From Chloroflexota bacterium (GTDB lineage Bacteria > Chloroflexota > Anaerolineae > DUEN01), in the NCBI GenBank assembly GCA_013152435.1, contig JAADGJ010000082.1, positions 1 through 46,393 of the forward strand: 46,393 nt of DNA, written 5' to 3'. Positions 41 to 46,393 of this stretch are shown here, piece after piece (position 1 is the stretch's first letter; every line of letters starts with the position of its first letter). A model generated the notes under the pieces. That model ran no database searches. It saw only the letters and a list, made by a program, of their open reading frames with translations, and was not told the origin of the DNA. A program made the position numbers and the translations under genes.

Positions 41-127
41 GTCCCTTCTCCAAAAAGCCAAACTTCAGGGAGGGGCGGAGCCCCTCCGAGCCTCCAGCGA
101 TGGCATTCCTCAAACACGCTCTCAGAG
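41..127 (-). repeat. Partial copy F of the structured intergenic repeat
   Basis: Read on the minus strand, the sequence starting at 127 matches the left inverted end of the other copies (CTCTGAGAGCGTGT, then GAGGAATGCC). It is followed by the first stem-loop: GGAGGGGC at 80-87 pairs with its complement at 69-76 around a 3-nt loop. The match to the full-length copies is lost after this hairpin, so the copy is truncated or diverged. It lies just past the glgX stop codon. A T-rich run follows the hairpin on the minus strand, so it may also end glgX transcription. Nothing else is recognised in 1-162. Confidence 0.6.
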
Positions 128-9481: not shown

Positions 9482-9581
9482 CTTAAGCGAACGGGGGAGC
9501 GTTGCCTCGCTTATTAGCATGGCTCAGAAGAGCCCAAACGTCCTTATGGGAATCTGACGGGGACCTTAAGCGAACCTTAAG
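9482..9581 (-). promoter_or_regulatory. CTTAAG box cluster (candidate response-regulator sites)
   Basis: The 11-mer CTTAAGCGAAC occurs exactly at 9482-9492 and 9565-9575, 83 bp apart (about eight helical turns). At 9563-9581 the octamer ACCTTAAG occurs twice with an 11-bp period. Direct repeats with 10-11 bp spacing are the usual target form of OmpR-family regulators, and one such regulator is encoded at 11356-12057. Caveat: the last CTTAAG overlaps the left end of repeat copy A. Confidence 0.5.
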
Positions 9582-9842
9582 AATGTATCTGAGAAACGCC
9601 GTTGCTTCTGCCGTGGGGAGGCCCGGAGGAGCGGGGCCCCTCCGGAAAAAGCCCTTCTTCTGCCTTCAACCTGCCTGGCCTCGGCCTGAGCCCTTTGGAA
9701 AGGGCCGAGAAAGGCAGGTGCAGGCAGGAAAAAAGAGGTTTCCGTGGAGGGGAGATCCCCTCCACGCCATTCCCTGTGGAGCTGGTCGTTGAGGGAGACC
9801 CCTCAGACACCGTGCCGGTAAATTTTCAGACCGCTCTAAGAT
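9575..9842 (+). repeat. Full-length copy A of the structured intergenic repeat
   Basis: A non-coding element of about 268 bp. The left end (CTTAAGAATGTATCTGAGAA, from 9576) and the reverse complement of the right end (CTTAGAGCGGTCTGAAAA) are related inverted repeats. Between them lie four stem-loops: 9623-9645 (7 bp), 9671-9717 (CTGCCT/AGGCAG plus inner CTCGGCC/GGCCGAG), 9744-9765 (9-bp perfect stem GTGGAGGGG with 4-nt loop), and 9790-9805 (TGAGGG/CCCTCA). The element fills most of the gap 9459-9904. Short frames crossing it are not credible genes. Confidence 0.85.
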
Positions 9843-28433: not shown

Positions 28434-29655
28434 GGGCTGGTGGGGTGGCCTTCTCGTCCTGGCGTTGTTCCTGTGCCTGGCGCCGGCCGTGGCCGCCTCC
28501 TCGGGCGAGACCTACATCGTCCGTCCGGGCGACACGCTGATTCGAATCGCCTCTCGCTACCAGGTCTCCGTGGAGGAGCTGGCCCGGGCGAATCGCTTGA
28601 GTGATCCCGACCTGATCGTGGTGGGGCAGCGGTTGATCATCCCGGGGACGGCCAGCTCCCCGATGGTTCCGATCAGCGGGACGCTGCCGTACCGCGTGCA
28701 GCCAGGGGACACCTTGTCCATCCTGGCGCAGCGCTTTGGCACCACGGTCGAGGCCATCTCTGAGGCCAACGGCCTGGAAGATCCCGATCTGATCGTGGTG
28801 GGGCAGCTGCTCTCCGTGCCTACAGTGCTCGCCGACGAGGCGCCTCTCCTGCCCAAGGGGCCGATCACGGCGGTTCGTGTGGATCCGGCCGTGGCGGAAC
28901 AGGGGCAGACGTTGTTCGTGCGGGTGCGGCTGGCCACGTCGTCTGCGCTGACGGTGACGTTTGAGGGGGCGCCCGTGCTCATGGTCGCCGACGAGGATGG
29001 ATACTGGGGGGTGGCCCCTGTCGGCGCTCTGATGGCGCCGGGGCGCAAATCCCTGCGAGTGCGCGTGGCGTCAGGCGGAGAGGTGACCGAGATCGAGTGG
29101 CCGGTGTGGATCGTGCAGGGGGACTATGACGTGCAGCACGTGGTTCTGCCCCCGGCCAAAGGCGATCTCCTGGACCCTCAGAAGCTGCGGGCGGAGCGGG
29201 AGAAGCTGGCCGAGGTCTGGGCGGACACGGTGGATCGGCCGTTGTGGGAGGGACCGTTCGTGACGCCTCTGCCACCCCGCTTTGTCACGTCGTCTCCCTT
29301 CGGCACGCGGCGCTCCTACAATGGCGGCCCGGTGAGCAGCTATCATGAGGGACACGACTTTGCCGCTCCGGAGGGCACGCCCGTGGTCGCCCCGGCCGCC
29401 GGACGCGTGGTCCTCGCCGAGCCGTTGGCCGTGCGGGGGAACGCGGTGGCCATCGATCACGGCCTGGGCGTGCACACCGGCTATTGGCACCTGTCGAGCA
29501 TCGATGTGAAGCCGGGCCAGAGGGTGCAGGTGGGGGACGTGATCGGCCGGGTGGGCACGACCGGGCTCTCCACCGGGGCGCATCTGCATTGGGAGCTGCG
29601 TATCGGCGATGTCCCCGTGGATCCCCTGACGTGGACGCGACGGTCCTTCCCCTGA
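28423..29655 (+). CDS. Secreted LysM-M23 peptidase
   Basis: A 410-aa exported cell-wall protein. A signal peptide (about 1-25, ending VAAS) precedes two LysM domains (about 30-74 and 89-133) that bind glycan, then a beta-rich linker domain (145-240), and a C-terminal M23/LytM endopeptidase. Zinc ligands H311, D312-region and H387-x-H389 (HLHWEL) are present, so it should be active on peptide cross-links. GTG start at 28423 inside the hpt end. It likely works with the nearby rod-shape genes in wall remodelling. Confidence 0.92.
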
Positions 29656-29750
29656 GAGGTACCCTCCACATCTCCTCATTATGGAGTTGGTGGTTGAGGG
29701 AGCCCCTCAGGCGCCTTGCCGGCAGATTTTCGGACACGCTCTTAAAGAAA
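29656..29750 (+). repeat. Right half (copy C) of the structured intergenic repeat
   Basis: This copy has only the last part of the element: the 3' arm of stem 3 (ACCCTCCAC), stem 4 (TGAGGG-agc-CCCTCA), GCCGGCAGATTTTCGG and the right inverted end ACACGCTCTTAAAG. It abuts the rplY terminator directly. Confidence 0.75.
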
Positions 29751-33756: not shown

Positions 33757-33793
33757 AGATCGCTCCAGGGATCGTATCTCCTTTCGCTATTTC

Positions 33794-34035
33794 TCAGACA
33801 CGCTCTCGGAGTGTGTCTGAAAAATGCTGTTGCTTCTGCTGGGGGGAGCCCCTCCGGAAAAAGCCCTTCTTTTGCCCTCGACTTGCCTGGCCTCGGCCTG
33901 GGTCCTGCGGAAAGGGCCGAGAGAGGCAGGTACAGACCGGAAAAGTGGGGTTTCCGTGGAGGGGAGGACCCCTCCACACCTCCTCCTGTGGGGCTGGTAG
34001 CTGAGGGAGACCCCTCAAAACATCTTGCCGGTCAA
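33794..34035 (+). repeat. Copy B of the structured intergenic repeat, with a doubled end
   Basis: The left end (GAGTGTGTCTGAAAAATGC, from 33810) is preceded by an inverted copy of the same end: TCAGACAC (33794-33801) faces GTGTCTGA (33813-33820). The four stems follow: GGGG-gga-GCCCC near 33841, stem 2 at 33884-33929, stem 3 at 33956-33977 (9 bp), and stem 4 at 34002-34017. The right end is weak and runs into the ribosome binding site of the 80-aa gene. Confidence 0.82.
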
Positions 34036-39265: not shown

Positions 39266-39448
39266 AGGGGGCTCGCTCATTGGGCCTCTCGGCGGCGATT
39301 TGAGGACTGCCGCCGGCGAGCCCCATCTGTTCATGCGCTCAGAGATCCCAGGGAAATCCATCGGGGGCCGGGACGCTCAAAAGGTCCCGGCTCCTGCTCT
39401 TTTGTGCGTTCAGCTTTTGCCTCCATGGCCCTGCACGATCCCTGGCTT

Positions 39449-39690
39449 GGGTAGTGTATCTTTTTCGGTGGAAATACAGCAGGGAGCTTTGAGGGGCGCA
39501 GCCCCTCAAAAGAAACCTCCCGGTTTCCGCCCCTCACCTGCCTTGCCCGGCCTTGCCCACCCGAATCAGGCCGGGAAAGGACAGGTGCAAAGCGGAAAAA
39601 GAGGATGTTTTGGCGGAGGGAGGTCCCTCCGCACCCCTCCCCTGTGGGCTTGCGATGGGCCTCGCGGAATTTCCACCATTCACTACCCTG
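39449..39690 (+). repeat. Variant copy D of the structured intergenic repeat
   Basis: It has the same stem order as copies A and B: stem 1 at 39488-39510 (10 bp), stem 2 at 39535-39587 (CACCTG/CAGGTG with inner CCCGGCC/GGCCGGG), and stem 3 at 39613-39632 (GCGGAGGG/CCCTCCGC). The ends differ from the other copies: GGTAGTGTAT...GGTGGAAAT on the left and its inverted form near 39668-39687. Stem 4 is missing. It fills most of the gap 39266-39772. Confidence 0.75.
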
Positions 39691-39702
39691 GCTTGTCCCC
39701 TT

Positions 39703-46325: not shown

Positions 46326-46393
46326 CTTTGAGAGAGTGTCTGAGAAATGCCGTTGCTTCTGCTGTGGGGAGGCCCGGAGGGGCTCCGCCCCTC
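46326..46393 (+). repeat. Left end (copy E) of the structured intergenic repeat, cut by the window
   Basis: The left end CTTTGAGAGAGTGTCTGAGA, then AATGCCGTTGCTTCTGC, matches copy A. Stem 1 (GAGGGGC-tcc-GCCCCTC, 46377-46393) closes at the last base of the window. The rest of the element lies outside. Confidence 0.8.

What the first reader, a model, noticed from the sequence alone, without database searches (positions are those of the whole stretch)
39488..39632. Compensatory base changes keep the stems of the repeat
Stem 2 inner arms read CTCGGCC/GGCCGAG in copies A and B but CCCGGCC/GGCCGGG in copy D. Stem 3 reads GTGGAG/CTCCAC in A and B but GCGGAG/CTCCGC in D. In both cases a T-A pair became C-G with both partners changed. 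Stem 1 loops vary (tcc, gca, gga) while stems stay. That pattern suggests selection on folded RNA or cruciform DNA rather than chance GC richness. Only a few copies are visible here, so this is suggestive.
Basis: seen in the sequence. Interest (0 to 1): 0.75.

Follow-up and report, generated by a model that had tools for sequence, protein, structure and literature searches.

The report
Shared hairpin core in mobile repeats
The matched base changes are real, but they separate families of small jumping DNA elements that share a three-hairpin core, and the copies show no sign of an RNA kept by selection; a DNA-copying error that mends hairpins explains most of the pattern.

Summary
Copy D is a 238-bp MITE-like element (39450-39687) with terminal inverted repeats and a perfect 8-bp target duplication. 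Copies A and B belong to a different MITE family with other ends and a 3-bp TNA duplication. A third family (E, at least 40 copies) duplicates a ~20-bp palindrome. These families, plus shells in three related genomes, carry a homologous 157-159-bp core of three hairpins. The compensatory changes lie between these lineages: outer pairs of hairpins 1 and 3 covary across 13 cores (0 of 2000 shuffles).

Within families the signal vanishes. Across 68 A copies, stem changes give G-T and A-C mismatches equally (261 vs 253), and same-branch compensations are at chance (19 vs 12.9±3.6). E shows the same; D has a weak excess (8 vs 3.1±1.7). SRP RNA, run through the same test, gives 22 vs 3.9. So RNA-level selection on copies is not supported. 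Loops recur as exact reverse complements (combined p≈3e-6), the footprint of template switching at DNA hairpins. I favour template switching, plus inheritance from well-paired founders. The unexpected part is one structured core inside several unrelated transposon shells.

The parts
39442..39449 (.). left copy of the 8-bp target duplication CTGGCTTG of copy D
   Evidence: exact match to 39688-39695
39450..39687 (+). D-family MITE-like element (copy D), 238 bp; ends GGTAGTGTATC... and ...CACTACC; the right inverted repeat has a small internal deletion relative to the family
   Evidence: family alignment; ends and duplication
39482..39641 (+). core of copy D: closing stem GGGAG/CTCCC around three hairpins
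   Evidence: covariance-model match 39482-39640, 109.6 bits
39488..39510 (+). hairpin 1 of D: TTTGAGGGGC-GCA-GCCCCTCAAA
   Evidence: sequence
39523..39598 (+). hairpin 2 of D, inner arms CCCGGCC 39546-39552 and GGCCGGG 39569-39575
   Evidence: consensus fold
39613..39632 (+). hairpin 3 of D: GCGGAGGG-AGGT-CCCTCCGC
39688..39695 (.). right copy of the 8-bp target duplication CTGGCTTG
9581..9836 (+). A-family element (copy A), ends GAATGTATCTGA / TCAGACCGCTC, flanked by TAA at 9578-9580 and 9837-9839; core 9615-9773
33809..34026 (+). A-family element (copy B), hairpin-1 5' arm deleted, right end degraded; core 33842-33985
46332..46393 (+). left part of a further A-family element, cut by the window end

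Best explanation
The repeats are non-autonomous, MITE-like elements of several families, each with its own ends and target duplication, around one homologous core of about 159 bp made of three GC-rich hairpins. Shown: the families, their ends and duplications, the shared core, covariation between lineages, its absence within the two large families, and reciprocal loop inversions. Inferred: the hairpins extrude in single-stranded or cruciform DNA; replication template switching between arms rewrites one arm from the other and flips loops; well-paired copies that then amplify found new families, so compensatory differences appear between families. After insertion most copies decay almost neutrally. 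The core was exchanged between shells by recombination, nested insertion or template switching among hundreds of copies.
For: Families: A has a TNA 3-bp duplication at CTNAG (33 of 67 exact, control 9.7); D has 8 bp, exact in the window copy; E duplicates a different ~20-bp palindrome in most copies with both flanks readable. Core homology between all four consensuses: best-orientation scores 57-108 against at most 34 in palindrome-preserving shuffles. The core occurs in four related genomes (own genus, own family, another family of the class) among 396 searched, with a weak fifth match. None of 80 loci from other phyla bearing the A-type end has the core. Between-lineage covariation. Within families: WC->GU 261 vs WC->AC 253; core only A 92/94, E 40/45, D 33/35. 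Positive control SRP RNA: compensations 22 vs null 3.9±1.8, WC->AC 14 vs null 27.9. Loop inversions: A hairpin 1 GGA 18:TCC 7; A hairpin 3 AGAT 7:ATCT 4; E hairpin 1 AAG 10:CTT 6; E hairpin 3 TACC 4:GGTA 2 and GGCA 3:TGCC 2; combined p 2.7e-6. The E core matches D better in reverse (77 vs 30). PMC8794818 describes multiple compensatory changes and loop inversion as footprints of template switching. 87 of 91 elements lie between genes.
Against: Compensations within the D family exceed the null (8 vs 3.1±1.7, 2 of 200). Stem columns differ less than unpaired ones in A (8.1% vs 14.2%), which leaves room for some constraint or a composition effect. Elements favour the strand of tandem neighbours (32:16). 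No transposase with these ends was found in the draft genome. Single template-switch events were not reconstructed base by base.
Confidence: 0.62

Rival explanations
1. The core is a structured RNA (for example an RNase III target or regulatory RNA) and selection keeps it folded in each copy.
For: Very stable folds (about -100 kcal/mol per core); covariation between lineages; slight same-strand preference; RNase III processing is known for Correia elements (PMC10969869).
Against: No G-U bias and no excess compensation in A and E with a working positive control; no Rfam match in the window; 20 of 65 A copies lack a hairpin arm; gene contexts match background.
Confidence: 0.1
2. Selection acts on DNA hairpins of source copies only, because the structure helps transposition (single-strand or cruciform recognition, or protection of the element).
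For: Family consensuses are well paired while copies decay; the core recurs in shells with different ends.
Against: Copies lacking hairpin 1 are common; ordinary DDE transposases need only the terminal repeats (general knowledge); the shells use different insertion signatures, so one transposase requirement is unlikely.
Confidence: 0.22
3. The apparent compensation is common descent alone: one or two tract replacements, with no continuing process.
For: Changes come in short tracts (TTT/AAA against CCG/CGG in hairpin 1) and the between-lineage test counts lineages that are not independent.
Against: At least four different well-paired outer-pair types in hairpin 1 and several in hairpin 3 across lineages, and repeated loop inversions in three families.
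Confidence: 0.06

Closest known systems
Bacterial MITEs (Correia/NEMIS, ERIC, RUP, QMITE2)
   Same: Short, non-coding, intergenic, multicopy, inverted ends, target duplication, strong predicted hairpins (PMC2229807, PMC10969869)
   Different: Here one homologous structured core sits in several families with unrelated ends and different duplication lengths; I found no report of this in the library searched
Template-switch evolution of hairpins (Monttinen and Loytynoja 2022, PMC8794818)
   Same: Multi-base compensation and reciprocal loop inversion
   Different: Described in functional RNA genes; here in decaying mobile DNA
GTAG-type REPs (PMC3733652)
   Same: Palindromes beginning GTAGGGGC resemble the sequences duplicated around some E copies; known in Chloroflexi
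   Different: The elements themselves are not REPs; no RAYT gene was sought
TIMEs and other mosaic miniature elements (PMC4133298, title and abstract only)
   Same: Mosaic non-autonomous elements
   Different: Tn3-derived and without a shared hairpin core, as far as the abstract shows

Membership tests
MITE (miniature inverted-repeat element) | terminal inverted repeats | tested here: met
   A, D and E ends
MITE (miniature inverted-repeat element) | target site duplication | tested here: met
   A 3 bp, D 8 bp; E about 20 bp, read by eye
MITE (miniature inverted-repeat element) | short, multicopy, no transposase inside | tested here: met
   about 240-260 bp; 91 elements above 60 bits in 1.15 Mb
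MITE (miniature inverted-repeat element) | autonomous partner with the same ends | tested here: inconclusive
   none found in the draft genome by PF01609, PF13340, PF05598, PF00872; repeats are poorly assembled in drafts
IS5 family, IS1031 group (A shell) | 3-bp TNA duplication | tested here: met
   TGA, TTA, TAA, TCA dominate; the link to IS1031 is from memory
IS5 family, IS1031 group (A shell) | matching transposase | tested here: inconclusive
   one IS5-like gene at C67 has other ends; the weaker match at C12 belongs to an IS with other ends beside an A copy
IS256 family (D shell) | 8-bp duplication and matching transposase | tested here: inconclusive
   8 bp met; the single PF00872 match has no D-type end nearby
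Structured regulatory RNA | match to a described family | tested here: not met
   no Rfam match at gathering score in the window
Structured regulatory RNA | pairing maintained in each copy with G-U intermediates | tested here: not met
   against control
REP/REPIN | 20-40-bp palindrome with GTAG/CGTC tag and RAYT transposase | tested here: not met
   element and core far longer and without the tag; RAYT not tested

The most novel reading that the evidence does not exclude
The three-hairpin core is a mobile module in its own right: it passes between unrelated transposon shells, borrows their transposases, and keeps its palindromes through template switching.
Probability: 0.25. Interest if true: 0.75.

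Novelty: new variant of a known kind. Interest (0 to 1): 0.5.

Why it matters
Compensatory base changes are usually read as proof of a functional RNA. Here they are plain between families yet absent where selection on individual copies would show, while loop inversions reveal a copying mechanism. The several hundred copies estimated in one genome make a natural test of whether template switching alone can imitate RNA covariation. The shared core in unrelated shells also shows that such elements can be assembled from modules.

Tried and rejected
RNAalifold on the A alignment gave a poor fold, so the consensus fold was used. A covariance-model alignment put D and E hairpins out of register, so hairpins were registered on their GAGG/CCTC arms instead. 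First SRP control with a wrong predicted fold was redone with the known hairpin. Parent transposases: four Pfam families, none with these ends. Terminator or promoter role: orientation of neighbouring genes matches background.

Full report
What is there. The window is contig C82 of a 4.97-Mb draft genome of 149 contigs. The finding's interval lies inside a 238-bp element, 39450-39687, flanked by a perfect 8-bp direct repeat, CTGGCTTG. Its ends are an inverted repeat of the type GGTAGTGTATCC...GGTGGAAAT, shared by some 20 full-length copies and about 40 matches in all. Copies A (9581-9836) and B (33809-34026) belong to another, larger family with ends GAGYGTGTCTGA...TCAGACACRCTC and a 3-bp TNA duplication within CTNAG: 33 of 67 copies have identical 3-bp flanks against 9.7 in shuffled pairings. 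In 1.15 Mb of fetched contigs there are 91 elements scoring above 60 bits, which would extrapolate to roughly 390 in the genome (inference).

A shared core. A and D have unrelated ends but a collinear core, closed by GGGGAG/CTCCCC and holding three hairpins. A third family, E, with at least 40 copies, has ends CCCATTGGTATCAAGTTAAGC, and in most copies where both flanks can be read they are direct repeats of a ~20-bp palindrome that differs from copy to copy. A fourth shell, F, carries the core once in the sample. The four core consensuses are 159, 159, 159 and 157 bp long, and all six comparisons exceed palindrome-preserving shuffles in their better orientation (57-108 against at most 34). E fits D better when reversed (77 against 30), so the core can sit in either orientation. 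A covariance model of the core found strong matches in 4 of 396 genomes of the class (the own genome, the other genome of the genus, one from another genus of the family, one from a different family) and one weak match in a fifth; some of these carry F-like or further ends. The A-type end with its CTNAG target occurs in many phyla and in archaea, often as small inverted-repeat elements, but none of 80 such loci contains the core. So shell and core have separate histories.

Is the compensation real? Between lineages, yes. With hairpins registered on their constant GAGG/CCTC arms, the five outward pairs of hairpin 1 are standard in 44 of 65 cells against 32.4 in shuffles, with 0 of 2000 reaching it; for hairpin 3 the paired cells are weaker (37 of 60, 9 of 2000) but both-side changes exceed all shuffles. 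The 13 lineages are not independent, so this supports the pattern rather than giving a clean probability.

Is it selection on RNA? Within families the answer is no, as far as this test goes. Substitutions were placed on a tree of 68 A copies: 261 turned a Watson-Crick pair into G-T and 253 into A-C, and on 19 occasions one branch changed both partners to a new Watson-Crick pair against 12.9±3.6 when events are shuffled over branches. An RNA fold on the given strand would tolerate G-U and avoid A-C. Restricted to the core, the ratios are 92:94 (A), 40:45 (E) and 33:35 (D); compensations are at chance in A and E and modestly raised in D (8 against 3.1±1.7). The same pipeline on the small SRP RNA of 30 genomes of the class gave 22 compensations against 3.9±1.8 and a depletion of A-C changes, 14 against 27.9. 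That control covers more divergent sequences than the repeats and its helices were partly set by hand, so it shows power, not equal power.

What else could make matched arms? Loops of hairpins 1 and 3 recur as exact reverse complements in three families: GGA/TCC, AGAT/ATCT, GCA/TGC, AAG/CTT, TACC/GGTA, GGCA/TGCC; combined p is about 3e-6 under a null that keeps distances from the commonest loop. An identical or nearly identical deletion of the hairpin-1 5' arm occurs in 20 of 65 A copies and is scattered over the tree as if at random (17 changes, 17.2 when shuffled), which fits recurrence or conversion, though the tree is star-like. Template switching between inverted arms is known to give multi-base compensation and loop inversion (PMC8794818). 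I therefore take DNA hairpins and template switching, with founder copies inherited by new families, as the most likely source of the compensatory differences; that step is inferred, not observed.

Where the elements sit. 87 of 91 overlap predicted genes by less than a quarter of their length, against 10.7% of random stretches, and the mix of tandem, divergent and convergent neighbours equals that of all gaps (crude gene calls). A 32:16 preference for the strand of tandem neighbours is weak and unexplained.

Limits. Copy numbers are lower bounds because the tools score only the best candidates. No autonomous partner was found. The family links IS1031-like and IS256-like rest on duplication length and memory of typical ends. 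No transcript data exist here.

Noticed in passing
L295-L324 (E-family loci): E copies are flanked by direct repeats of ~20-bp palindromes, some starting GTAGGGGC like GTAG-type REPs; the palindrome differs from copy to copy, which suggests a hairpin-targeting insertion system.
   Followed up: partly
window 33809-34026 and 19 other A copies: The same ~16-bp loss of the hairpin-1 5' arm, between GGAG repeats, recurs in 20 of 65 A copies without tracking the tree.
   Followed up: partly
L146-L225: The A-type end TTCAGACACGCTCTNAG occurs in Lachnospiraceae, Verrucomicrobia, Gammaproteobacteria, Methanosarcina and others, often as 80-280-bp inverted pairs with no transposase between them: a cross-phylum MITE end.
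   Followed up: partly
window 33790-33808: TTTCTCAGACACGCTC just upstream of copy B looks like the right end of another A element, leaving two ends 3 bp apart.
   Followed up: no
window 64-122 (-) and 29645-29734 (+): Short remnants of A-type ends.
   Followed up: no
L124 (G000:C12) 884-2337: An IS with ends CTCGACTTTGTACG inserted directly beside an A element, apparently flanked by CTAAG on both sides.
   Followed up: no
L115 15090-15445 (G000:C37): An E element inserted inside a hairpin of an A-like core, a nested chimera that shows one way cores and shells could mix.
   Followed up: no
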